Below the pieces are notes generated by a model. It was not told where the DNA came from, ran no database searches, and was given only the letters and a program-made list of their open reading frames with translations. Positions 38,225 to 56,787 of a stretch of 64,000 nt of DNA are shown piece after piece. Each line of letters begins with the position of its first letter. Positions within the stretch are counted from its first letter, which is position 1. Origin of the DNA: Nocardia australiensis (GTDB lineage: Bacteria > Actinomycetota > Actinomycetes > Mycobacteriales > Mycobacteriaceae); the NCBI RefSeq assembly GCF_020733705.1, contig NZ_JAJFZM010000001.1, forward strand, positions 186,001 to 250,000, written 5' to 3'. The translations under genes and the position numbers were made by a program.

Positions 38225-38683
38225 TCAACGAACATCTGTGGTCGCCAGCACCGTCGCGATCATCGCCGTCTGCTCGCGCCAGCGGCGCAGGTCGGTGACG
38301 CTCGGCGCGAGTTCGTAGTCGTAATGGTGGGCGGCGCGCGAGAGCGCGGACCATACCGTCGCCACCTGCGCGGCGGTCTCAGGTCCGGCGAAGACCCGTA
38401 ATGCCATGAGCTGTGCGCGCATCGGACAGCGCGTCAATTCCGGGGCCACCCTCGCCCACAGTTCATCGACGCACTGTTCGAGAGCCAGTCGCAGAATCCA
38501 CACGGTCGCGCGCGACCACAGACCGTCGGCGTCGGTGACAGTTCCGTCGAGCAGCCGGTCCACGGCATCGAATCGATCGGCCACCGTGGGTCTCGGCCTG
38601 CGCGCCACCGCGCCCCGGCCCGCAGCGCCGCGGCGCGGGCCACCCTTACCGGAGCCGCGACGCGACCCCTGCCGCGCGCTCAC
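38225..38683 (-). CDS. Small all-helical partner of the SMC-like ATPase, HEPN-like by appearance
   Basis: This is a 152-residue protein I cannot place in a named family. The first 35 residues are Arg/Gly/Ala-rich and probably disordered. The rest reads as four or five helices (TVWILRLALEQCVDELWARV ... AQVATVWSALSRAAHHYDYELAP ... REQTAMIATVLA). The SRAAHHYDYELAP segment is rich in potential catalytic or binding residues. It recalls the Arg/His region of HEPN domains, but the spacing does not match the standard R-x4-6-H motif, so that is only a hint. GTG at 38683 overlaps the ATPase stop by 4 bp, so the proteins are made together and probably interact. Confidence 0.7.
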   Translation of the reverse strand: MSARQGSRRGSGKGGPRRGAAGRGAVARRPRPTVADRFDAVDRLLDGTVTDADGLWSRATVWILRLALEQCVDELWARVAPELTRCPMRAQLMALRVFAGPETAAQVATVWSALSRAAHHYDYELAPSVTDLRRWREQTAMIATVLATTDVR

Positions 38684-41124
38684 GCGCGCAACCAGGCGAC
38701 GAACCTGTCGGTATCCGCGATCAGTTCGCGCATGCCGCGCCCGATCGGCACGTGCGCGCCCGCCGTCGCGTCACGCAGCGCGTCCACCACCCATTTACCC
38801 TCTCTCGCAAGGTGTTTGTTGAGATCGTCGACCCGCCCGGAGACCCCCATCACCGCGAGCGCGACCATCGCGCGGGTGGTGTGCGCGCCCTCGATGTGCC
38901 GCTCCACCTCCCGATGGTCCATGCCCTCGGCCAGCAGATTGCGCCTGGCCCTGGCCAGGCTGGCCGCCTCGACGGCCGACCGGCAGCAGGTGGCGACCAA
39001 TTCATCAGCGATCGCGGGCGGCAGCTGCGGGGTCCGGGCCAGCGAACGCGCGTCGTCGAGATAGCGGCGCACCGGATCACTCGACACCCGCACCTCGACC
39101 ACCGAACGCTCGCGCCGTTGCACCTCGAGTACGGAGGCGTCCAGTTGCAGTCGGCGCACCGCCTCGGCCAGCCGCTCGTCATGGGTGAATACGACCACCT
39201 GCCGCGTCCACGCGACATAGGCGAGTACCCGGGCCAGACCGTCCACTTTCGCCGGATCCATGGCCTGCACCGGGTCGTCGATCATGACAAAACGAAATGG
39301 ACTCTGCTCCACGGTGGCACGCGGCAGAAACAGCGAAAGGCCCAGCGCGTGCAATTCGCCCTGGCTCATGACTCCGAGCGCCGCACCGTCGACCTCGTCG
39401 ACGGTGACGTCGAGCAATACCCGGCGCGCGGTTCCGGCGTTGCCCTGCAAGCGAATTGCGCCCAGCTCGACATTGCTCTGCTGACGCAGGGTGTGCCAGA
39501 CCCAGCGCGCCGTCGTCTCCAGCGGAGCCATTCGTTCGCCGCGTAATCCCGCGGTAGCCGACTTGAGCCAGTCCTCGGCCCGTTTCACCGTGCGCAGGGT
39601 GCCGACCTGGGTGGCCACCCGCCGGGCACCGTCGAGCCAGGCGATGATCCTGGGCACCAGGGGCAACCAGACTTCGTCGAGGCGATTGAGCTCTTTGCGC
39701 GTGCCCTGCTGCAGCAGGGCGAGTTCATCGACGAGTCGCGTGTGCGCGCCGCGCAATCGGTCCGCAAGGTCCGTGGTGTAGTCGGCCGAGGCCAGCGCGG
39801 CCCATTCGGCCCACGCCCGGCGAACCGCGGTGGTGTCGACGGTGGGCGGGTAGCGCGGGTCGAAATCCAGTTCCGCCGGAACATGTTCCGGTAATGCGCG
39901 TGCCGCGCGAACGGCTCCGCGCAATTCGGCGCGCGCGGTCGCGAGCGCGTCGACTCGCGCCGTCAACGCGGCGATCGAGGCATCCGCTTCCGCCGCCCAG
40001 GCATCGTCCAAGTCCCCACGTCCGCAGACCGGGCAAACGCAGATACCGCTCGCGACGACATGCTCGCGCGCGCGCCGCAGTAACTCCAGCAACCGAAGGT
40101 CGGCCTCGGCGTCGGCAGTGGTGTCGCGGGCCAGAACTTCGCCGCACTCTTCCAGCCGCGCCGCCACCGTCTCGACCTCGGCTCCGGTGGGTACCGCAAG
40201 GCGCACGATCGCCCGCAGACCCGCAGGTCCGGACGGGTCGTCGGCAGTGCCGAATACCTCCCGGCCGACGGCTGGCAAATCGGGTTGAGACGGTCGCAAC
40301 AGTCCGGCCACCCGGGCGGCGCGATCATCAGCCACCTGTTGCAGCGCGGTTATCAGCTCGAGGCGTTCCTGCCGTGAATCGCGTCCCGCACGTTCGAGTT
40401 CCAGGCGGCGCGCGCGAATCCGCTCCTGCGCCAGGGTCAGTTCGTCTAGACCGAGCAGTTGGTGCAGGGCGTCGAACAGATCGCTCGGCTTGCCGTCGAC
40501 CAAGGCGCCGAGCTCACTGTAGGAAAGGAACGGGCGATACAAATCCAGTAGCCCCGACCAGCGTTCGGCATCGAAATCCGTTGGGGCGGCATGCGGTCGC
40601 CGTTCGGTCCAGCGCGCCTCGGTGAGGGCGGCCTCGGGCGACCACTCCTTGGTGATGGTCAGCTCGGAATCGCGTCCGGCGGTGAGCAATTCCAGCTCGA
40701 TTCGCGCGTCACCGGCGTGCAGGTTGCGCCAGCCCTCCCGCCAGGCCGCCGAGCGTCCTTCCCAACGGCGGTTTCCGCCGGTGAGCGCCAATTCGGCGGC
40801 CTCGGCGAAACTGGACTTGCCGCTGCCGTTGCGCCCGACCACCAGAGTCAGGCCGGGGCCGGGCGGCAACTCGAGCGACACCTCGGGGCCGATGCCGCGA
40901 AAGCCGCGTACCCGGATGGCGCGCAGGAATATTCCGGAACCATCGAATTCTGTTGTCCGGTCGCCGGATTCGGTGCCGAGAGCTTGCAGGACCGCATGCG
41001 AGACATCGGCGGTCACGGCAGGATCCTCCGCGAGCCGACGAGCTACCACCTCGGTGAGCCGTGGTACGGCCTCGGTAGCCGGTTCGGACTCGGTAGCCGG
41101 TACGGCCTCGAGATCGGTGCGCAT
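38680..41124 (-). CDS. RecF/SMC-like ATPase with zinc knuckle and helical C-terminal domain
   Basis: The 814-residue ABC-type (SMC/RecF/SbcC class) ATPase has the N-terminal core IRVRGFRGIGPEVSLELPPG with Walker A GRNGSGKSS at 97-105. A Q-loop region (FLSYSELGALVD) precedes coiled-coil-prone sequence, with a central zinc knuckle CVCPVCGRG at 362-370. A second coiled-coil stretch, signature-like MSQGE at 586-590, Walker B RFVMIDDP at 611-618 and H-loop His648 follow. Residues about 684-814 form an extra helical module not found in RecF or SbcC. ATG at 41124 follows GGAGGGGG. There is no SbcD-type nuclease partner. It is coupled to the 152-residue protein and divergent from the SWIM-MoxR operon. 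Confidence 0.82.
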   Translation of the reverse strand: MRTDLEAVPATESEPATEAVPRLTEVVARRLAEDPAVTADVSHAVLQALGTESGDRTTEFDGSGIFLRAIRVRGFRGIGPEVSLELPPGPGLTLVVGRNGSGKSSFAEAAELALTGGNRRWEGRSAAWREGWRNLHAGDARIELELLTAGRDSELTITKEWSPEAALTEARWTERRPHAAPTDFDAERWSGLLDLYRPFLSYSELGALVDGKPSDLFDALHQLLGLDELTLAQERIRARRLELERAGRDSRQERLELITALQQVADDRAARVAGLLRPSQPDLPAVGREVFGTADDPSGPAGLRAIVRLAVPTGAEVETVAARLEECGEVLARDTTADAEADLRLLELLRRAREHVVASGICVCPVCGRGDLDDAWAAEADASIAALTARVDALATARAELRGAVRAARALPEHVPAELDFDPRYPPTVDTTAVRRAWAEWAALASADYTTDLADRLRGAHTRLVDELALLQQGTRKELNRLDEVWLPLVPRIIAWLDGARRVATQVGTLRTVKRAEDWLKSATAGLRGERMAPLETTARWVWHTLRQQSNVELGAIRLQGNAGTARRVLLDVTVDEVDGAALGVMSQGELHALGLSLFLPRATVEQSPFRFVMIDDPVQAMDPAKVDGLARVLAYVAWTRQVVVFTHDERLAEAVRRLQLDASVLEVQRRERSVVEVRVSSDPVRRYLDDARSLARTPQLPPAIADELVATCCRSAVEAASLARARRNLLAEGMDHREVERHIEGAHTTRAMVALAVMGVSGRVDDLNKHLAREGKWVVDALRDATAGAHVPIGRGMRELIADTDRFVAWLRA

Positions 41125-41652: not shown

Positions 41653-44550
41653 ATGACCGCACCGTGGACCGAGGAGCAGGTCACCGCGCTCGCACCGGAC
41701 GCGGGCTCACTGTCCGCCGCACGGAAACTCGCCGGACGCTGGCACGGCATCGGGTATCGCGATACCGCGCTGTGGGGTCTGTGCAAAGGCAGTGGCGCCA
41801 AGCCTTATCAGACGATCGTCGATCTGACGGGTCCGGCGTACAAGTGCTCGTGCCCGAGTCGTAAATTCCCGTGCAAGCACGCGTTGTCGCTGCTGTTCGC
41901 CTGGTCGGCCGGGATGGTCGACGAGGCGGCGCAGGTAGCCGATTTCGCGGCCGAGTGGATCGCGAGCCGCGCCGCGCGAGCGACCGCGCCCGCGAGTGAA
42001 ACCGCCACGCGTACAGCGAATCCGGCGACCGCCGAACAACGCCGGGTGCGAGTGACCGCGGGGTTGGAGGAACTCGACGTCTGGCTCGGCGATCAGGTTC
42101 GCACCGGCCTCGCGCAGAGCGATCGGTCGTTCGGGGCATTCGAGGCGATCGCCGCGCGAATGGTCGACGCGCAAGCGCCCGGTATCGCATCCGCATTGCG
42201 ACAGTTGCCCATTGCGGTAGCGGCAAGCACGGACTGGCCCGCGCTGGTTCTGGGTGAATACGCCCGGTTGCATCTGCTCGTCGCCGCGCACCGCCGACTC
42301 GACGACATGACACCCGCGCTCGCGGCAAGTGTCCGCGCCCACATCGGCTACCCCGCACCGGCCGAGTCGGTGCGGACCGAGCCAGCCGTGCGCGACCGCT
42401 GGATGGTGCTCGGCATGCGGACCAGCGAGGAAGACCGGCTGTATACGAGGCGAACCTGGTTGCACGGGCGCGAAAGCAGGCGCTGGGCCATGCTGGTCGA
42501 GCATTCGTTCGGTTCACCGAGCTTCTCCGGCGAGGTGCCCGCGCCCGGCATGATGGCCGACGCGCAACTGCACTACTACCCAGGCGCGGCGCCGCTGCGG
42601 GCGCTGTGGGGTGAGCGGCACGGCGCACCGGAGCCGTTCACCACGTTGCCGGTCGCCGATGGAACCATCGCAGCCGCGATCGATGCACACGCGCATGCCG
42701 TCGGCGCCGACCCGTGGCTGCGCTCGTGGCCGGTGCTGCTAGCCGATGCAACGCCGGTATTGACCAAAAAGGGTTGGTACATAGCTGAATCCGACGGATC
42801 GGCACTACCGCTTGCCCGGGTAGAAGAGCCATGGCGGTTACTCGGCGTCTCCGGCGGGCATTCGGTGACGCTGGCCGCCGAGTGGACGGCAGGTGGCCTG
42901 GTGCCGATCTCGGCGTTCGTAGCGGGCGAGGTGGTCGACGTCAGCAATAACTGGCCCGCTGTCGGACGAATACTGAATTCTGTTGCCGCATCGGCAACTG
43001 ACGCCGCCGACCTCGCCTCGGTCGCACTGCTCGGCACCGCGCGGCGCGCGGCGGACCCCGCCCGCCTCGATGCGCCGGTCGCGGCCGCCGCCACCAGACT
43101 TCGCACGGACCCGGCGCTGCTACTCCTCGAGTCGGCGGCGCTGCGTGACGCTTTCGCACGCGGCGGTGTGGTCACCGATACCGCGACTATATCGGCACCG
43201 GCCGAGGACGATCCCCGGCCAGAGCTGCCACGCGCCGCCGCGGCCAAGCTGGCAAGGATGCTGCAGGACCGATCGGCCTTCCTACCCGAATGGTTCGCGG
43301 CGGCACAACCACACGGCTACCGCGCGCCGGACGGATTGTGCGGACTGTTACTCGAACAGGCCCGGACGAATTCCGAACTGCGCGAGCCGCTGTTGCGGCT
43401 GGCCGGCACGCGGGGACGCTGGCTGGCCACCCTGCATCCGGCGTGGCGAAAACTCGTGCGGCACGGCAGCGAAACGCCTGCCGCGCAGGTCTGGCAGTTC
43501 GGCAAGCCGCCCGAACGCCGGGAGTGGCTCACCGAACTGCGCGGCCGGGATGCCACCGCGGCCCGCGAGGCGCTGTCGGCGACGTGGCCGAAGGAATCGG
43601 GTCCGCTCAAAGCGGAACTGCTCGCCGTGCTGTCGGCCGGGATTTCCCCGGCCGACGAGCCGCTACTGGAAACCGCACTCGACGATCGACGTGCCGATGT
43701 CCGGCGGACCGCAGCCGGATTGCTCACCCTGCTACCGGATTCGGCGTTCACCGATCGGATGCGGCGGCGTGCCACCCAGTGGATCACGACCGCATGGGAT
43801 TGCGCCGATCCGAACGAGCCGCGTGCGCAGCTCTACGTCGAAATACCCGAATCCCTCGAAGCAACAGACCGCAGGGACGGAATTTCGGATCGCACCGCCG
43901 AATTCAGCTATCGCTGGGGTGGCGCACCCGACGCGACCGCAGGCAGGCTGCGGCAATTGGTAGCCGCGACACCGCTGGCCCACTGGACAACCGCGCTGGG
44001 TACCCCCGGTGAACCGAGTACCCCGCAGCAGGCGGCCAAGGCTGCCATCGACGATCGGTTCCGGCAGCCACTGTTCGACGGGTGGGTGGATGCCGCACTC
44101 GCACAACGGAATCCGGTATGGGCGCGAGCACTCTTCGATGCCGGCGTGCCGTCCGACCTCGCCATGCTGCGGCGGCGCGAACTGTTCGCCCTACTGCCGC
44201 TGGCCGATCGGACCGAGCACCTGGTACACCTGGACGGCTCCTGGCTCTCGGAGATCGAGGCGCTGCTGCCCGCGATGGGGCATCCGTGGCCGCAATCGCT
44301 GGCGGCGCACCTGATTCTGCTGTTGTTCGAACGTGCGCGCGCCGCGCAACAGCGTCCTGGGGCGCACGGCGCCACACCGAGCGCGCATCGTTCCCTGCTG
44401 GCAGCGGCGTCCGCACATCTCCCGCTCAGCGCTGCCGATGCGGTCGACGCCGTGATCCTCCGCTGTACGGAACCCAGCTGGGAGCAGGCATTCAATCGAC
44501 TCGCCCATGACCTCAACCACCGCTCGATAATGCTTCAGGAGCTGCAGTGA
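41653..44550 (+). CDS. SWIM zinc-finger protein fused to a DUF5691-like region
   Basis: This 965-residue protein has two parts. Residues 1-450 contain the SWIM zinc finger CSCPSRKFPCKH (Cys65, Cys67, Cys74, His76), a metal-binding module for nucleic acid or protein contacts, followed by helical sequence. Residues about 454-965 start with LASVALLGTARRA and include ADEPLLETALDDRRADVRR and LLTLLPDSA. They read as the helical-repeat region called DUF5691, which I recall as a separate gene in related operons. ATG at 41653 was chosen; the frame is open to 41242 without support. The stop overlaps the MoxR start by 4 bp. It is first gene of the operon. Confidence 0.85.
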   Translation: MTAPWTEEQVTALAPDAGSLSAARKLAGRWHGIGYRDTALWGLCKGSGAKPYQTIVDLTGPAYKCSCPSRKFPCKHALSLLFAWSAGMVDEAAQVADFAAEWIASRAARATAPASETATRTANPATAEQRRVRVTAGLEELDVWLGDQVRTGLAQSDRSFGAFEAIAARMVDAQAPGIASALRQLPIAVAASTDWPALVLGEYARLHLLVAAHRRLDDMTPALAASVRAHIGYPAPAESVRTEPAVRDRWMVLGMRTSEEDRLYTRRTWLHGRESRRWAMLVEHSFGSPSFSGEVPAPGMMADAQLHYYPGAAPLRALWGERHGAPEPFTTLPVADGTIAAAIDAHAHAVGADPWLRSWPVLLADATPVLTKKGWYIAESDGSALPLARVEEPWRLLGVSGGHSVTLAAEWTAGGLVPISAFVAGEVVDVSNNWPAVGRILNSVAASATDAADLASVALLGTARRAADPARLDAPVAAAATRLRTDPALLLLESAALRDAFARGGVVTDTATISAPAEDDPRPELPRAAAAKLARMLQDRSAFLPEWFAAAQPHGYRAPDGLCGLLLEQARTNSELREPLLRLAGTRGRWLATLHPAWRKLVRHGSETPAAQVWQFGKPPERREWLTELRGRDATAAREALSATWPKESGPLKAELLAVLSAGISPADEPLLETALDDRRADVRRTAAGLLTLLPDSAFTDRMRRRATQWITTAWDCADPNEPRAQLYVEIPESLEATDRRDGISDRTAEFSYRWGGAPDATAGRLRQLVAATPLAHWTTALGTPGEPSTPQQAAKAAIDDRFRQPLFDGWVDAALAQRNPVWARALFDAGVPSDLAMLRRRELFALLPLADRTEHLVHLDGSWLSEIEALLPAMGHPWPQSLAAHLILLLFERARAAQQRPGAHGATPSAHRSLLAAASAHLPLSAADAVDAVILRCTEPSWEQAFNRLAHDLNHRSIMLQELQ

Positions 44551-45656
44551 CCACAGTGACCACCGAAGAAACGACGCCGGAGCTGTTGCGGCCGCATGCC
44601 GAACAGGCATACGCGGACGAACTGCGGGCACTTGCCGCGATCGACGACCGGCCTCGCCCGCCCTCCTGGCAGCTGTCGCCGTGGGCGGTGGTGACGTATC
44701 TGCTCGGTGGCGCGCTGGCGGACGGCACCGTGATCACGCCGAAGTATGTCGGGCCGCGCCGGCTCATGGAAGTGGCGGTGGCAACGCTGGCCACGGATCG
44801 GGCGCTGCTGCTGCTAGGCGTCCCGGGAACCGCGAAAACCTGGGTGTCCGAACATCTTTCGGCTGCGATCTGCGGCGGGTCGACGCTGCTCGTACAGGGC
44901 ACCTCCGGCACGGCCGAAGAGGCGATCCGCTACGGCTGGAATTACGCGCGACTACTCGCCGAGGGCCCGAGTGAGGGCGCGCTGGTGGCTTCGCCGGTGA
45001 TGACCGCGATGCGCCGCGGTGCGATCGCCCGCATCGAGGAACTCACCCGCATTCCGTCGGACGTGCAGGACGCGCTGATCACCGTGCTGTCCGAAAAGAC
45101 CCTGCCGGTACCGGAACTCGGCATGGAGGTACAGGCCACCAAGGGCTTCAATGTGATCGCGACGGCCAACGATCGCGATCGCGGCGTGAACGACCTGTCC
45201 TCGGCGCTGCGCCGCCGCTTCAACACCGTGGTGCTGCCGCTGCCCGCCAGCGAGGACGACGAGGTCGCCATCGTCACGCGCCGGGTGGAACAGCTCGGCT
45301 CGGCGCTCGAACTGCCGACCGTTCCCGCCGCCGCCGAAGAGGTACGTCGCGTGGTCCGGATCTTCCGCGAACTGCGCACCGGTATCACCGCCGACGGGCG
45401 CACCAAACTCAAGTCGCCGTCGGGAACCCTGTCCACCGCCGAAGCGATCTCGGTGATCACCAATGGCATCGCACTCTCCGCCCACTTCGGCGATGGTGTC
45501 CTACGCGCCTCCGATATCGCGGGCGCGGTGCTCGGCTCGGTCATCAAGGACCCGGTCGCCGACGCCGTCATCTGGACCGAGTATCTGGAAGCCGTTGTCC
45601 GCGAACGCACCGATTGGTCGGACTTCTACCGTGCGTGTCGTGAGGTGAGCGGGTGA
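44547..45656 (+). CDS. MoxR-type AAA+ ATPase
   Basis: The 369-residue AAA+ ATPase of the MoxR branch has Walker A GVPGTAKT at 91-98, a Walker B region IARIEELTRIPSDVQDALI, sensor-1 FNVIATANDRDRG and the arginine-finger region SSALRRRF. MoxR proteins act with VWA-domain partners as chaperone-like machines that insert metals or remodel complexes. Here the VWA partner is two genes downstream. GTG at 44547 overlaps the SWIM stop by 4 bp, and the stop overlaps the DUF5682 start by 4 bp, so expression in fixed ratio is likely. Confidence 0.92.
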   Translation: MTTVTTEETTPELLRPHAEQAYADELRALAAIDDRPRPPSWQLSPWAVVTYLLGGALADGTVITPKYVGPRRLMEVAVATLATDRALLLLGVPGTAKTWVSEHLSAAICGGSTLLVQGTSGTAEEAIRYGWNYARLLAEGPSEGALVASPVMTAMRRGAIARIEELTRIPSDVQDALITVLSEKTLPVPELGMEVQATKGFNVIATANDRDRGVNDLSSALRRRFNTVVLPLPASEDDEVAIVTRRVEQLGSALELPTVPAAAEEVRRVVRIFRELRTGITADGRTKLKSPSGTLSTAEAISVITNGIALSAHFGDGVLRASDIAGAVLGSVIKDPVADAVIWTEYLEAVVRERTDWSDFYRACREVSG

Positions 45657-47986
45657 GCGCGAGCGCTGCGGCGACAGAGCGAGCCACCGGGATGACAGGG
45701 GCTGAACCGGCGACGCGAGTATTCGGCATTCGCCATCACGGCCCGGGTTCCGCCAGATCGCTGCGTTCGGCGCTGGAGGCGTTTCGACCGGACGCGATCC
45801 TGATCGAGGGACCGGCGGATGCCGATCCGCTGGTCGGGTATGTCGCTGCCGAGGGGATGGCGCCGCCCGTCGCGCTGCTGGCCTACGTACCGGACGCACC
45901 GGCGAAGGCGGCATTCTGGCCGTATGCGGTGTTCTCACCGGAGTGGCAGGCGCTGCGCTATGCGACTGAACACGATGTGCCCGTTCGATTTTGCGATCTC
46001 CCTGCCACCACGGTGCTCGCCGCCGCCGATGAGCCGGGCGATCGTATCGATCCGCTCGGCGAGCTCGCCGCCGCCGCCGGCTATGACGACGCGGAGCGCT
46101 GGTGGGACGCCGTGGTCGAATCCGCTGCGGACGCAGACGCTTTCGACGCCATCACCGAAGCCATGGGGGCGCTGCGCGAGGCCGCCGAACGTGGCGAGTT
46201 CGGTATCGCGATCACCGAGTCCGAATCCGAAAATGAGGTAGCCGAGGCTGATTCGGCTGACGCGCGGATTCTTCGCCGCACGCCGACGGGGATCGACGCA
46301 CACACCCTGCGTCGCGAGGCATACATGCGCCAAACCATGCGCAAGGCACTCAAGGAGGGTGCGCAACGGCTCGCGGTGGTGTGTGGGGCGTGGCACGCGC
46401 CCGCCTTGACCGGCAAGCTCGGGCCCGCGGCCGCCGACACCAGGTTGCTGAAGGGGCTGCCGAGGGTGAAGGCGACGGTGACGTGGGTGCCGTGGACACA
46501 TTCCCGGCTGGCATCGGCATCCGGTTACGGCGCGGGGATCGCCTCGCCGGGCTGGTATCACCATCTGTTCACCGAGACCGAGCAGCCCATCGCCCGGTGG
46601 CTCACCCGCGTGGCCGGTGTCCTGCGGGCGAATGATCTGCCGGTGTCGAGCGCCCACATCATCGAGGCCGTGCGGCTTGCCGACACGCTCGCGGTATTGC
46701 GCGAGCGTCCGCTGGCCGGGCTATCGGAGGTTACCGAGGCGGTGCGTTCGGTGATGTGCGCGGGCGACGAGACCATGGTCGGCTTGATCGCCAACGAGCT
46801 CGTGGTCGGCGAGGCGCTGGGCGCGGTGCCCGAGGGGACGCCAACCGTACCGCTCGATGCCGATCTACGAGCGCGGATCCGGACCTTGCGTATGAAGCAG
46901 GACGCGCTTTCGCGCACGCTCGATCTGGATCTGCGCAAGGAACGTGAGGTCGAACGGTCCCGGCTGCTGCACCGACTGCGACTGCTCGGCATCGACTGGG
47001 GCACGCGCACTGTCGGCGAGGTCCGCAGCACCGGCACCTTCCGCGAAACCTGGACGCTGGAATGGCGACCGGAATTCGCGGTCTCGATTATCGAGGCGTC
47101 GCGCTGGGGCACCACCATCCGCACCGCCGCCGAGGCGAAAATTCTCGATACCGCGAATCGCGAAGGCAGCACGGTCGGTGATCTCACCACCGCATTGGAG
47201 ACAGCGTTACTCGCCGACCTCGGCGACGCCACCGATGGACTGATCGCGCGACTGGAATCGGTTGCTGCCCTTGATCACGACGTGAGTCACCTGCTCGCCG
47301 CACTGCCCGGGCTGGTCCGCTCGCTGCGTTACGGCGATGTTCGCGGCACCGACACCGGGGCGCTCGCGCACGTGGCCGACGGCTTGATCGTTCGCATCTG
47401 CGCCGGCCTGCCCAGCGCGGTCACCGGCTTGGATGCCGACGCCGCTGGACAACTCCGCGATCTGATCGACAACGCCCACACCGCCATCCACACCAGGGAT
47501 GACGAGTGGGCGACCAAGGAATGGCTGACCGCGCTCGGCCGGATCGCCGACCGCGACGACGTGCACGGCAGCATCGTCGGCCGCGCGGTCCGGCTGCTCT
47601 GCGATGCGGGCATCATCGACGAAACCGATTCCGCACGCAGGCTTTCCGCCGCGCTGTCGATCGGCAATACCGCTGCGGCCAAAGCCGCGTGGATCGACGG
47701 GTTCGTCGGCGAACGCGGTCTGCTGCTCGTACACGATCGAGAGTTGTTGCGCCTCATCGACGATTGGCTCCGCTCGCTACACGATGACCAGTTCGTGGAG
47801 ATCCTCCCGCTGCTGCGCCGCACCTTCGGCGCCTTCGAATCGGGCGAACGCCGCGCCATCGGCCAGGCGGTCCGCGACGGCGGTGTCGCCCCTCGCGGCG
47901 ACACGGCAGGCGGCACCGCCATCGACGTGGAGCTCGGCCTGACCGCGATGCGCGCTGTCGTCGAAATCCTGTGTGTAACAGGATGA
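45653..47986 (+). CDS. DUF5682 family protein
   Basis: The 777-residue protein begins, after a 20-residue leader, with VFGIRHHGPGSARSLRSAL (His28, His29) and ILIEGPADADPLVGY (Glu52). It later has LRREAYMRQTMRKAL and VVCGAWHAPAL (His248). These conserved His/Glu/Arg positions resemble the ChaN/EreA/TraB-TIKI superfamily, some members of which are metal-dependent hydrolases, so residues 20-260 may be an enzyme domain. The remaining 500 residues are helical with no motif I recognise. GTG at 45653 overlaps the MoxR stop by 4 bp. Function is unknown. Confidence 0.85.
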   Translation: MSASAAATERATGMTGAEPATRVFGIRHHGPGSARSLRSALEAFRPDAILIEGPADADPLVGYVAAEGMAPPVALLAYVPDAPAKAAFWPYAVFSPEWQALRYATEHDVPVRFCDLPATTVLAAADEPGDRIDPLGELAAAAGYDDAERWWDAVVESAADADAFDAITEAMGALREAAERGEFGIAITESESENEVAEADSADARILRRTPTGIDAHTLRREAYMRQTMRKALKEGAQRLAVVCGAWHAPALTGKLGPAAADTRLLKGLPRVKATVTWVPWTHSRLASASGYGAGIASPGWYHHLFTETEQPIARWLTRVAGVLRANDLPVSSAHIIEAVRLADTLAVLRERPLAGLSEVTEAVRSVMCAGDETMVGLIANELVVGEALGAVPEGTPTVPLDADLRARIRTLRMKQDALSRTLDLDLRKEREVERSRLLHRLRLLGIDWGTRTVGEVRSTGTFRETWTLEWRPEFAVSIIEASRWGTTIRTAAEAKILDTANREGSTVGDLTTALETALLADLGDATDGLIARLESVAALDHDVSHLLAALPGLVRSLRYGDVRGTDTGALAHVADGLIVRICAGLPSAVTGLDADAAGQLRDLIDNAHTAIHTRDDEWATKEWLTALGRIADRDDVHGSIVGRAVRLLCDAGIIDETDSARRLSAALSIGNTAAAKAAWIDGFVGERGLLLVHDRELLRLIDDWLRSLHDDQFVEILPLLRRTFGAFESGERRAIGQAVRDGGVAPRGDTAGGTAIDVELGLTAMRAVVEILCVTG

Positions 47987-48043
47987 TGCCGCCACTTCGC
48001 GGCACACGATATCTCCGTCCATCGACTACTCGGGAGCAGCGCA

Positions 48044-49207
48044 ATGACCGCCACCGATGAGACCCATTCCAGACGTTGGCGGTTGGTGCTCGGTACCGCC
48101 GCCGAGCCGAGTCTCGGCGGGCTCGGTACCGCGGACGACCAGGCCATGGACGCGGCACTGTCGGCCCTGTACAACACCGAGGAGAACACGGCGTCGGGTA
48201 AACGCGCGGGCGGCCTCGGCGCTTCAGCGCCCAAGATGGCGCGCTGGCTCGGCGACATCCGCAACTACTTCCCGTCGACCGTCGTCGAGGTGATGCAGCG
48301 CGACGCGGTCGACCGGCTGAACCTGACACAGTTGCTGCTGGAGCCGGAATTACTCGAGGCGGTGGAACCCGACGTGCACCTGGTCGGCACCCTGCTGAGC
48401 CTCAACGGGGTGATGCCGGAAACCACCAAGGCGACCGCGCGCATGGTCGTGGAAAAGGTGGTGCGAGAGATCGAACAGCGCATCGCCGCACAGACTCTCG
48501 CGGCCGTTACCGGTGCCTTGAACCGCGCCACCCGGGTCAACCGGCCCCGCCTGCGCGACATCGACTGGGACCGCACCATCCGCAAGAATCTCGCCAACTA
48601 TCTGCCCGAGCATCGCACCGTGGTACCGGAACGCCTGGTCGGCTACGGCCGCAAAGCCCAGGCGGTCCGCAGAGACGTCGTACTCGCCATCGACCAGTCC
48701 GGCTCGATGGCGTCGAGTGTGGTCTATGCGTCGGTGTTCGGTGCCGTCCTCGCCTCGATGCGCGCTCTGAAAACGTCCCTGGTCGTCTTCGACACCGAGG
48801 TAGTCGACCTCACCGAGCACCTCACCGACCCCGTCGAGGTCCTCTTCGGCACCCAACTCGGCGGCGGCACCGACATCAATCGCGCCATCGCCTACTCGCA
48901 ATCACTCGTCACCCGGCCCGCCGACACCCTTTTCGTCCTTATCTCCGACCTCTACGAGGGCGGGATCAGGGCAGAAATGCTGCGCCGCGTCAACGCCATG
49001 AAGGAGTCCGGCGTCCAGGTGGTGGTCCTGCTGGCCCTATCCGACGACGGCGCCCCCGCCTTCGACCACGAAAACGCCGCCGCACTCGCCGCACTCGGCG
49101 TCCCAGCCTTCGCGTGCACCCCCGACAAATTCCCCGACCTGCTCGCCCTGGCCCTCGACCGCGGCGACATCCAGACCTGGGCCAACAACAACGCCGGGAA
49201 ACCGTGA
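48044..49207 (+). CDS. VWA-domain protein with intact MIDAS
   Basis: The 387-residue cytosolic von Willebrand A protein has a helical N-terminal half of about 200 residues and a VWA domain from about 210. The metal-ion-dependent adhesion site is complete: DQSGS (Asp217, Ser219, Ser221), Thr276 in LGGGTDINR and Asp302 in LISDLYEGG. No signal peptide or membrane span is seen. The start is ATG at 48044, 57 bp after the DUF5682 stop. It is the expected mechanical partner of the MoxR ATPase and closes the operon. Confidence 0.9.
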   Translation: MTATDETHSRRWRLVLGTAAEPSLGGLGTADDQAMDAALSALYNTEENTASGKRAGGLGASAPKMARWLGDIRNYFPSTVVEVMQRDAVDRLNLTQLLLEPELLEAVEPDVHLVGTLLSLNGVMPETTKATARMVVEKVVREIEQRIAAQTLAAVTGALNRATRVNRPRLRDIDWDRTIRKNLANYLPEHRTVVPERLVGYGRKAQAVRRDVVLAIDQSGSMASSVVYASVFGAVLASMRALKTSLVVFDTEVVDLTEHLTDPVEVLFGTQLGGGTDINRAIAYSQSLVTRPADTLFVLISDLYEGGIRAEMLRRVNAMKESGVQVVVLLALSDDGAPAFDHENAAALAALGVPAFACTPDKFPDLLALALDRGDIQTWANNNAGKP

Positions 49208-49283: not shown

Positions 49284-50243
49284 TCATTTCCGCTGACGAT
49301 CCAGATCCAGCCGCGCCACCAGCGCGCGGTGATCCGCGCCCGTTAGGCCGACAGTGTCCGCCGCGCGGGCGTGCCCTCCGGCGATGAGTATGTGGTCGAT
49401 GCCGACGAGCGGCGGCCAAGGCTTGTCGGTCGGATAGGTGACCAGGTGTCCGGCACCCGCCTGTTCGACAGCGTCGCCGAAACGCCCCGACAGCATCGTA
49501 CGGAACTGCGCATGGTCGTAGGTCGCGTTGAAGTCGCCGCCGACGATCGCCGGTCGGCTCGCGGGCGACCGCTCGAGAATCTCACGCAGACGGGACAATT
49601 CGTCGGCCCAAACCCGCGTGCCATATACCGGCGGCACCGGATGGAAGGCATACACCGTGACCGGTCCGATATCCGGGATGGTTGCCGTCGCCGAAAGCTG
49701 GTTCAGCACGAACCCGTCGTACTCGACGGTTTCCGACAGTGGGTAACTGCTCCAGATTCCCGTTCCGGTCGCGGTCCTGCCTGGTGACAGATGCCGGTAC
49801 GGCAATACCTGGTCCAGACCCGCCCGGCGGAGCCCCTCGACCGCGACAGGTGTGAGTTCATTGACGGTGAGCACCGCGACCTTCCGCACGCGAACCTCAT
49901 CGACCAGCACCTGGGGATCGGCCCCGTCGAACAGCAGATTGGCCTGCATCACCATCACCTCGTGGCCGCCGTCGTCGCCCGAGCGACCGACATACAGCGG
50001 AGCCTGCGCCCACACTGCGGCGGCAACGACAACGATCGCCACTCCCGCCCCGATCCAGCGCCGCATGGCGGCAAACGCCACCGCCCCAACGAGCGCACAG
50101 CACATCAGGTACGGCGCACCCGAAGCCGCCAATACCAACACCCGAGCCGACGACCGACTGAAATACAATGCCACCCCAGCCGCTCCCACCAGCGTCGCAG
50201 CCCACGCGAGCACATTGACACCGGCCCGAACCGACTTCCGCAT
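49284..50243 (-). CDS. Membrane-anchored endonuclease/exonuclease/phosphatase-fold protein
   Basis: The 319-residue protein has three hydrophobic N-terminal spans (about residues 8-28, 34-58 and 63-82), then an extracytoplasmic EEP domain. The EEP motifs are MVMQANLLF, VLTVNELTP, IVGGDFNATYDH and the terminal LTGADHRALVARL. EEP proteins cleave phosphodiesters in nucleic acids or lipids; the substrate is unknown here. The start is uncertain: the frame is open to 50420 and could add another span; none of the starts has a clear Shine-Dalgarno. It lies after the terminator of the ABC exporter, so it probably has its own promoter. Confidence 0.75.
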   Translation of the reverse strand: MRKSVRAGVNVLAWAATLVGAAGVALYFSRSSARVLVLAASGAPYLMCCALVGAVAFAAMRRWIGAGVAIVVVAAAVWAQAPLYVGRSGDDGGHEVMVMQANLLFDGADPQVLVDEVRVRKVAVLTVNELTPVAVEGLRRAGLDQVLPYRHLSPGRTATGTGIWSSYPLSETVEYDGFVLNQLSATATIPDIGPVTVYAFHPVPPVYGTRVWADELSRLREILERSPASRPAIVGGDFNATYDHAQFRTMLSGRFGDAVEQAGAGHLVTYPTDKPWPPLVGIDHILIAGGHARAADTVGLTGADHRALVARLDLDRQRK

Positions 50244-50434
50244 CACACCGGACAGCAAAGCACGAACTGCGAGGTGCGCCCAGCCCGCGGTGCGACGATC
50301 CCGAACTGTCGCGCTAACCGCATGACGTCGGCCCGATGACCGAGCGACACCTCGGATCATGGTGTGGAGCAGCCCGCCTAGCACAGCGATCAACGCAAAC
50401 GCACAGCCACAGCAGCACATAACCCGGCCACCCC

Positions 50435-56205: not shown

Positions 56206-56787
56206 TTACCCGATGGCGAAATGCAGCAGCGCCTGCTTGTCACCCTGCTTGATCTTGCCCTTCCGGTTGATGACCTCGAGCTGCCAGTTCGGGCCGGTGC
56301 GGAAGGTCCTCGCGACGGCGACGGCGTTGTCCGCACCGAGCAGCGACGGCCAGATATCGGCGACCTGCTCGGAGGTGCCGCCAGTAGCGTCATAGACCTT
56401 GAACGAGACGTTATTGGCCTTGTCGAACGAACTGCCCTTCTTGAAGGCAGTCGCCACGAACACAATGGCGTCGATACCATCGGGCACATTGGCGAAGGTG
56501 ACGTGCACCGACTCGTCATCGCCGGTGGCGGCGCCGGTCTGCTCATCACCGGTGTGCTGAACCGAGCCGTTACCCAGCGGGTCGAGCGAGTCGAGTCCGG
56601 CGAAACGAACCGGCTCCGGGCCTTGCATGAGAATGGCGATCAAATCCAAATCCACACCGCGCTTGCGGCGCGCCCACCCGAGTGCACCGCCGCTGGTGCC
56701 CGACGACGGGTCCCAGCTGACCCCGACGGTCAGTTTGGTGATGCCGTTGAGATCCGCGGCGCCATCTTCCTTTTTGAGCGTGATCAT
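56206..56787 (-). CDS. TerD family stress protein
   Basis: The 193-residue TerD-domain protein binds Ca2+ through acidic loops such as GDDESVHVTFANVPDG. The family is linked to tellurite, phage and oxidative-stress resistance and often travels with other ter genes, but here it is alone. The N-terminus ITLKKEDGAADLNGITKLTVG is shorter and more divergent than in classical TerD, and the mid-section includes GALGWARRKRGVDLDLIAIL. ATG at 56787. Confidence 0.87.
   Translation of the reverse strand: MITLKKEDGAADLNGITKLTVGVSWDPSSGTSGGALGWARRKRGVDLDLIAILMQGPEPVRFAGLDSLDPLGNGSVQHTGDEQTGAATGDDESVHVTFANVPDGIDAIVFVATAFKKGSSFDKANNVSFKVYDATGGTSEQVADIWPSLLGADNAVAVARTFRTGPNWQLEVINRKGKIKQGDKQALLHFAIG

What the first reader, a model, noticed from the sequence alone, without database searches (positions are those of the whole stretch)
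41653..49207. Four-gene SWIM/DUF5691-MoxR-DUF5682-VWA operon, a candidate undescribed molecular machine
Seen directly: four co-directional genes, three of them joined by 4-bp GTGA overlaps, encode a zinc finger with helical repeats, an AAA+ ATPase with intact Walker A, a DUF5682 protein with conserved His/Glu, and a VWA protein with a complete MIDAS. Known: MoxR ATPases work with VWA partners, and ternary MoxR-VWA systems have been proposed as conflict or chaperone systems from comparative genomics. Inference: SWIM recognises a target, MoxR-VWA remodels it or gates an effector, and DUF5682 is the enzyme. I know of no experimentally assigned function for this set. None of the proteins has a signal peptide, so it acts inside the cell.
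Basis: partly seen in the sequence, partly recalled or inferred. Interest (0 to 1): 0.88.

Follow-up and report, generated by a model that had tools for sequence, protein, structure and literature searches.

The report
MoxR-VWA machine with Tiki-like enzyme
Four neighbouring genes that travel together in many bacteria, with a counterpart (yehLMPQ) in most E. coli genomes, encode a likely ATP-driven machine whose unstudied core protein carries the signature of the TraB/Tiki enzymes and is predicted to be its cutting or hydrolysing part.

Summary
The operon is real and strongly conserved: SWIM-DUF5691, MoxR, DUF5682 and VWA_CoxE genes at 41653-49207 of a Nocardia-like genome. The block recurs in Actinomycetota, Cyanobacteria, Planctomycetota and Pseudomonadota; 70 of 80 named loci found through DUF5682 hold all five domains. 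It is not undescribed as a kind: E. coli yehL-yehM-yehP-yehQ is the same set (39/29/38% identity for MoxR/DUF5682/VWA; SWIM shared), and YehL is a named MoxR subfamily. My searches of the held papers found no function. New here: the N-terminal domain of DUF5682 is a distant relative of TraB/PrgY/GumN (Tiki superfamily) with the full G-x2-H / E / R / G-x2-H signature (profile E about 1e-4 for one comparison; 0 of 200 and 0 of 150 column shuffles as good; H, E, R, H invariant in 108 of 108 aligned sequences and in 4 of 4 diverged paralogs). The core comes with DUF5691, with DUF4132, or with DUF5682 fused to VWA. Presence in 77 of 78 genomes of the genus and 5301 of 5426 E. coli genomes, and constant Nocardia flanks, argue against a mobile phage-defence cassette. 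Best reading: a likely ATP-driven, target-directed hydrolase or remodelling machine; substrate and activity untested.

The parts
41653..44550 (+). Gene 1, 965 aa: N-terminal SWIM zinc finger (residues 65-76), beta-rich middle (about 246-430), C-terminal DUF5691 helical (HEAT-like) repeats
44547..45656 (+). Gene 2, 369 aa: MoxR AAA+ ATPase of the YehL type
   Evidence: PF07728 AAA_5; 39% identical to E. coli YehL over 363 columns; GxPGxAK[ST] Walker A; 4-bp overlap with gene 1
45653..47986 (+). Gene 3, 777 aa: DUF5682 protein; N-terminal TraB/Tiki-like domain (about residues 16-260; G25-x2-H28, E52, R221, G245-x2-H248), C-terminal helical repeats
   Evidence: PF18934 862 bits; 29% identical to E. 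coli YehM over 585 columns; profile match to TraB; residues invariant; model pLDDT 82, pTM 0.75
48044..49207 (+). Gene 4, 387 aa: VWA_CoxE protein with MIDAS motif
   Evidence: PF05762; 38% identical to E. coli YehP over 363 columns; motif; 57-bp gap after gene 3

Best explanation
The four genes encode one conserved set, the actinobacterial counterpart of E. coli yehLMPQ, which likely forms an ATP-driven machine: DUF5682 carries the TraB/Tiki signature and is predicted to be the hydrolase, the MoxR ring and its VWA partner would power or gate it, and the SWIM/HEAT-repeat protein would likely choose the target. Shown here: the set is co-inherited and mostly co-directional; MoxR, DUF5682 and VWA are the constant core in nearly all loci read; DUF5682's N-terminal domain is profile-related to TraB/PrgY/GumN with the whole G-x2-H, E, R, G-x2-H signature; in one subtype DUF5682 and VWA are a single protein, which suggests that they work in physical contact; an ORF with a SWIM finger or SWIM-like motif accompanies most core loci, together with DUF5691 (type I, this window) or DUF4132 (type II, E. 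coli). Inferred from what is proposed for known MoxR-VWA pairs: the VWA MIDAS grips a peptide or loop of a client and the MoxR ring pulls or remodels it in an ATP-dependent way. Predicted and untested: the TraB-like domain hydrolyses a peptide or ester bond in the client (limited proteolysis or deacylation rather than complete degradation), inside the cytoplasm, in a chromosomal, stably kept role rather than as a mobile defence cassette.
Confidence: 0.5

Rival explanations
1. DUF5682 is the dedicated client: MoxR-VWA matures or reactivates it (for example by metal insertion or removal of an inhibitor), as CoxD-CoxE, NorQ-NorD or CbbQ-CbbO do for their enzymes, and then leaves; the SWIM/DUF5691 protein is an assembly factor.
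For: MoxR proteins with known roles mature or activate particular partner enzymes, NorQ and CoxD among them (PMC3893208 passages; CbbQ-CbbO recalled); the VWA is of the CoxE family; Tiki is described as metal dependent (PMC6254334 passages, which also call the protease studied there metal independent); DUF5682 is the constant partner of the pair.
Against: DUF5682 and VWA are one protein in type III (6 of 6 loci), which fits a permanent machine part better than a client that is released; among the named loci only L070 and L084 show a readable flank with neither MoxR nor VWA, and L164 shows MoxR but no VWA.
Confidence: 0.27
2. A conflict or defence system: SWIM senses an invader, MoxR-VWA sets a threshold and DUF5682 attacks a host or phage target.
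For: MoxR-vWA ternary systems have been proposed as conflict systems (PMC7159879 passages); distribution across phyla is patchy (21 of 296 genomes of the window's phylum; 10 of 200 of Thiofilum's); 36 of 72,556 plasmid records hold a relative, though some of these records are of chromosome size.
Against: 77 of 78 genomes of the genus and 5301 of 5426 E. coli genomes carry it; Nocardia flanks are constant (permease and ABC ATPase 21 of 21); no PADLOC family for the four proteins; the flanking genes scanned are of metabolic, cell-wall or transport types, with PADLOC similarity only of the generic ATPase, ABC or weak kind; no relative found in IMG/VR by pattern scan, one unannotated record among 50,697 phage records; none of the third components of that paper's four subsystems (VMAP, iSTAND, FtsH, beta-propeller) was found beside the pair.
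Confidence: 0.13
3. DUF5682 has kept the TraB-like fold but acts as a structural scaffold; the set is a non-hydrolytic chaperone that assembles or repairs a nucleoprotein or respiratory complex, with SWIM/WGR domains contacting it.
For: RavA-ViaA and midasin-type pairs act on complexes (PMC3893208, PMC7159879 passages); a TraB-family subunit sits in ciliate complex IV as an accessory part (PMC10060162 legend); SWIM and WGR are nucleic-acid or protein binding modules (recalled).
Against: The His, Glu, Arg and His of the signature are invariant in 108 of 108 sequences and in 4 of 4 diverged paralogs, unusual for a mere scaffold.
Confidence: 0.1

Closest known systems
E. coli K-12 yehL-yehM-yehP-yehQ (YehL subfamily of MoxR ATPases)
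   Same: Same four families side by side and co-directional: MoxR 39%, DUF5682 29%, VWA 38% identity; SWIM protein in both; weak colinear profile similarity between gene 1 and the YehQ group beyond the finger (Prob 5.6, E 0.007, 0 of 150 shuffles)
   Different: E. coli has the order MoxR-DUF5682-VWA-SWIM, two SWIM stretches in YehQ, no DUF5691 match, and WGR/DUF4132 genes upstream; the window has SWIM-DUF5691 fused and first, and no DUF4132 in the 18 window ORFs that I scanned, the operon included
TraB/PrgY/GumN (PF01963) and the wider TIKI superfamily (Tiki, Ere, ChaN)
   Same: G-x2-H, Glu, Arg, G-x2-H at matching spacing; profile E about 1e-4; a chain of a complex that contains a TraB-family subunit is the first structural row for the N-domain
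   Different: Not detected by Pfam's own TraB model; long C-terminal helical repeats; operon with MoxR-VWA; no Ere-type Glu two places before the first His (position 26 is Ile)
MoxR-vWA ternary conflict systems (PMC7159879)
   Same: MoxR-vWA pair plus a further conserved component
   Different: Third component is DUF5682, not VMAP, iSTAND, FtsH or beta-propeller; carried by 77 of 78 genomes of the genus and most E. coli; the words SWIM, Yeh, TraB and Tiki do not occur in the main text held
CoxD-CoxE, NorQ-NorD, RavA-ViaA
   Same: MoxR AAA+ with an adjacent VWA partner; the VWA here is of the CoxE family
   Different: No CO dehydrogenase or NO reductase gene among the flanking ORFs scanned; the fixed companions are DUF5682 and SWIM

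Membership tests
YehLMPQ-type MoxR-VWA system | YehL-like MoxR with GxPGxAK[ST] Walker A | tested here: met
   39% identity to YehL; motif
YehLMPQ-type MoxR-VWA system | Adjacent DUF5682 (YehM) protein | tested here: met
   862 bits; 29% to YehM
YehLMPQ-type MoxR-VWA system | Adjacent VWA_CoxE (YehP) protein with MIDAS | tested here: met
   38% to YehP; DxSxS
YehLMPQ-type MoxR-VWA system | Adjacent SWIM protein (YehQ) | tested here: met
   PF04434 in both; no meaningful BLASTP similarity, weak profile similarity
TIKI/TraB superfamily | G-x2-H, Glu, Arg, G-x2-H signature at matching spacing | tested here: met
TIKI/TraB superfamily | Shared fold (parallel beta core with helices) | tested here: inconclusive
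TIKI/TraB superfamily | Hydrolase or protease activity | not testable with these tools
   no assay
Pfam PF01963 (TraB_PrgY_gumN) proper | Match to the Pfam model over its cut-off | tested here: not met
   No PF01963 row at E up to 10 for six N-domains; so a distant relative, not a member of PF01963
MoxR-vWA ternary conflict systems (PMC7159879) | VMAP, iSTAND, FtsH or beta-propeller third component | tested here: not met
   Pfam found SWIM, DUF5691 and DUF5682 beside the pair; bpMoxR 20.6 bits against cut-off 27
Known anti-phage defence systems (PADLOC-DB 2.0) | Match to a PADLOC protein model | tested here: not met
   0 families for the four proteins
CoxDE-type maturation pair | VWA of the CoxE family | tested here: met
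   PF05762 176 bits
CoxDE-type maturation pair | CO dehydrogenase client genes next to the pair | tested here: not met
   None among the 14 flanking ORFs scanned

The most novel reading that the evidence does not exclude
DUF5682-MoxR-VWA is an unrecognised class of ATP-dependent proteolytic machine: a MoxR ring with a Tiki-type peptidase as its cutting subunit and exchangeable targeting subunits (SWIM-DUF5691, or DUF4132 with SWIM), a line of AAA+-coupled proteolysis separate from Clp, Lon, FtsH, HslUV and the proteasome, and present in nearly every E. coli.
Probability: 0.2. Interest if true: 0.92.

Novelty: new variant of a known kind. Interest (0 to 1): 0.62.

Why it matters
E. coli's yehLMPQ belongs to the conserved genes without a known function; the TraB/Tiki assignment names likely catalytic residues and turns an open 'y-gene' question into a direct test in a laboratory strain. 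If the machine hydrolyses its client, it would be a new way to couple a AAA+ motor to a hydrolase, with targeting parts that differ between subtypes.

Tried and rejected
Defence reading: PADLOC on the four proteins gave nothing. On flanks it gave 31 families for the SMC-like ATPase (best E 7e-17), 9 for the ABC ATPase (best 3e-33, 'mad3'), 1 for the permease and one weak hit for an FAD enzyme; I take these as generic similarity. IMG/VR scan: 31 pattern stretches, none a relative; phage records: 1 of 50,697. Rejected as the main reading. Sequence search for solved relatives of DUF5682 (none at E up to 1) and of TraB did not identify 7w5z_E. Pfam hmmscan at E up to 10 did not show the TraB relation. 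PF01963 in the window's class: 0 of 60 genomes, so TraB sequences were taken from elsewhere. DUF5691 against DUF4132 by profile: no relation (Prob 0.4), SWIM against DUF4132: none. ZSWIM8 (9rwz_N) spans gene 1 end to end in the structural list but with rmsd 30: a lead, not evidence. I first held, from a pattern search, that the type IV paralogs lack the motif; an alignment showed that they keep it except G25, so that statement was dropped. Literature: one search was swamped by the author name Yehl; two searches gave lists, from which I opened passages: yehM among genes mutated in copper-evolved E. coli (PMC12409786), yehQ in a strain table (PMC6442406), yehP in a CRP target list (PMC3105977), the DUF4132 region disrupted in a clinical sublineage (PMC9334617); PMC8940909 'YEHP' is a medium name; PMC2447237 gave no passage. 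None of these passages assigns a function. The claim of no function in print rests (open-licence library, lists capped at 20-40 rows).

Counts told in full: of the 80 named loci 10 are incomplete: L063, L074, L078, L085, L099, L105 lie at contig ends on the missing side; L065 (no DUF5691 found) and L109 (no SWIM or DUF5691) have the relevant flank; L070 and L084 show DUF5682 alone, each cut on one side. SWIM CxC..CxH pattern in 84 of 91 loci; full MIDAS pattern 101 of 107, GxPGxAK[ST] 103 of 107. Loci were chosen by DUF5682 similarity, the best 80 of 578 confirmed, so they cannot show how often partners occur without it. DUF4132 in L159-L164 was called by my own profile, not by Pfam.
Full report
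WHAT IS THERE. Four co-directional genes occupy 41653-49207. Gene 1 (965 aa) has a SWIM finger (CxC-x6-CxH) and C-terminal DUF5691; gene 2 (369 aa) is a MoxR AAA+ ATPase; gene 3 (777 aa) is DUF5682; gene 4 (387 aa) is VWA_CoxE with a MIDAS motif. Genes 1-2 and 2-3 share GTGA; a 57-bp gap precedes gene 4. The named proteins among the best 120 hits of each search are from Nocardia (best 84% identity for DUF5682; best 79%, and 77% for a named one, for gene 1 apart from the window's own protein), so the window is Nocardia-like.

IT IS A CONSERVED UNIT. In 296 genomes drawn evenly from the phylum, DUF5682 occurs in 21 and DUF5691 (over cut-off) in 18, all 18 inside the 21 and on the same contig with starts within about 6 kb (Fisher 5e-26, ignoring relatedness; three further DUF5691 hits below the cut-off were not counted). 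Of 80 named loci found through DUF5682, 70 hold SWIM-gene, DUF5691, MoxR, DUF5682 and VWA similarity, among them Leptolyngbya, a Synechococcales MAG, an Isosphaeraceae MAG and Thiofilum. SWIM and DUF5691 parts are one ORF in 24 of the 80 (21 Nocardia, plus Phytohabitans, Isosphaeraceae, Actinoplanes); in 9 loci, all Streptomyces or close kin by title, the SWIM gene is divergent from MoxR. MoxR-DUF5682 and DUF5682-VWA are co-directional in 76 of 76 and 75 of 75 loci that show both. The largest neighbour cluster that is not part of the block is in 20 of 81 loci, and the window's flanking genes recur in Nocardia loci but otherwise only in L048 (permease), so the block itself is what is kept.

IT IS THE E. 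COLI yehLMPQ KIND. MG1655 carries yehL (MoxR), yehM (DUF5682), yehP (VWA) and yehQ (SWIM), with 39, 29 and 38% identity to window genes 2, 3 and 4. YehQ and gene 1 show no meaningful BLASTP similarity but a weak, colinear profile match beyond the finger (Prob 5.6, E 0.007, 0 of 150 shuffles). YehL is one of seven named MoxR subfamilies (PMC3893208, passages). DNA of yehLMPQ is found in 5301 of 5426 complete E. coli genomes, 5162 with at least 80% coverage.

SUBTYPES. Type I (window): SWIM + DUF5691. Type II (E. coli, L020, L028, L159, L160, L161, L163): DUF4132 with a SWIM or SWIM-motif ORF (WGR also found by Pfam in L028 and in yehF of E. coli; DUF4132 by Pfam in YehI, L020, L028 and by my own profile in the others). 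Type III (L022-L027): DUF5682 and VWA in one ORF, with MoxR and a SWIM-motif ORF. The SWIM motif of L022 and L028 is a pattern hit without a Pfam match. Type IV (L029-L032): MoxR with a textbook Walker A (three read), VWA and a strongly diverged DUF5682 (60-74 bits to my profile) that still keeps the signature residues apart from G25; no sense-strand SWIM motif was found there. In the ten Pseudomonadota loci read, DUF5691 and DUF4132 never occur together (4 and 5 loci, 1 cut). So MoxR-DUF5682-VWA is the constant core and the rest looks exchangeable (inference).

DEFENCE? Unlikely as a mobile cassette: 77 of 78 genomes of the genus, the window's own included, hold the high-scoring DUF5682 (the exception, G300, has only a 106-bit relative); the permease and ABC genes downstream are kept in 21 of 21 named Nocardia loci and the SMC-like gene in 18; no PADLOC family for the four proteins; no IMG/VR relative found. 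It was not found in the 6 listed same-family genomes of other genera, though named loci show it in some Rhodococcus, Williamsia and Gordonia, so its presence is stable in some lineages and patchy between them.

NOVELTY. The kind (MoxR-VWA, YehL type) is known; the type I architecture, the subtype scheme and the TraB/Tiki assignment of DUF5682 were not found in the held literature: DUF5682 0 papers, DUF5691 0, no functional account of YehM/P/Q among the rows listed.

Noticed in passing
window 49284-50420: Endonuclease/exonuclease/phosphatase-fold gene (- strand) directly after the VWA gene; a homolog (over 45% identity) lies beside the operon in 0 of 21 named Nocardia loci, so it looks like a local insertion.
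   Followed up: partly
window 38680-41124: 814-aa SMC/RecF-like ATPase (- strand) next to gene 1, kept beside the operon in 18 of 21 named Nocardia loci; many generic PADLOC ATPase similarities.
   Followed up: partly
L022-L027: DUF5682 and VWA_CoxE fused in one protein next to MoxR and a SWIM-motif ORF: a distinct subtype.
   Followed up: partly
L029-L032; further roughly 100-bit matches in many genomes: Strongly diverged DUF5682 paralogs beside a MoxR of textbook Walker A and a VWA protein; they keep H, E, R, H of the TraB signature but have Pro for the first Gly.
   Followed up: partly
L012, L041, L043, L045, L046, L088, L092: Gene 1 lacks the SWIM finger (no CxC..CxH in any frame from 2.5 kb upstream to the gene's end) while its other parts and the rest of the block are present.
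   Followed up: yes
L070, L084: Cyanobacterial DUF5682 genes with no MoxR, VWA or SWIM detected on the side of the contig that is present.
   Followed up: no
L164: MoxR and DUF5682 with two DUF4132-like genes downstream but no VWA or SWIM detected.
   Followed up: no
MT835988.1:10638-12755: A 14-kb unannotated 'Bacteriophage sp.' record from faeces encodes a DUF5682 relative over 92% of the query (28% identity); may be a bacterial contig.
   Followed up: no
window 41653-44550: The gene 1 model aligns end to end, though at rmsd 30, with a chain of the ZSWIM8-CUL3 complex (9rwz_N); ZSWIM8 is another SWIM protein (recalled).
   Followed up: no
window 56206-56787: TerD-domain gene about 7 kb downstream of the operon.
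   Followed up: no
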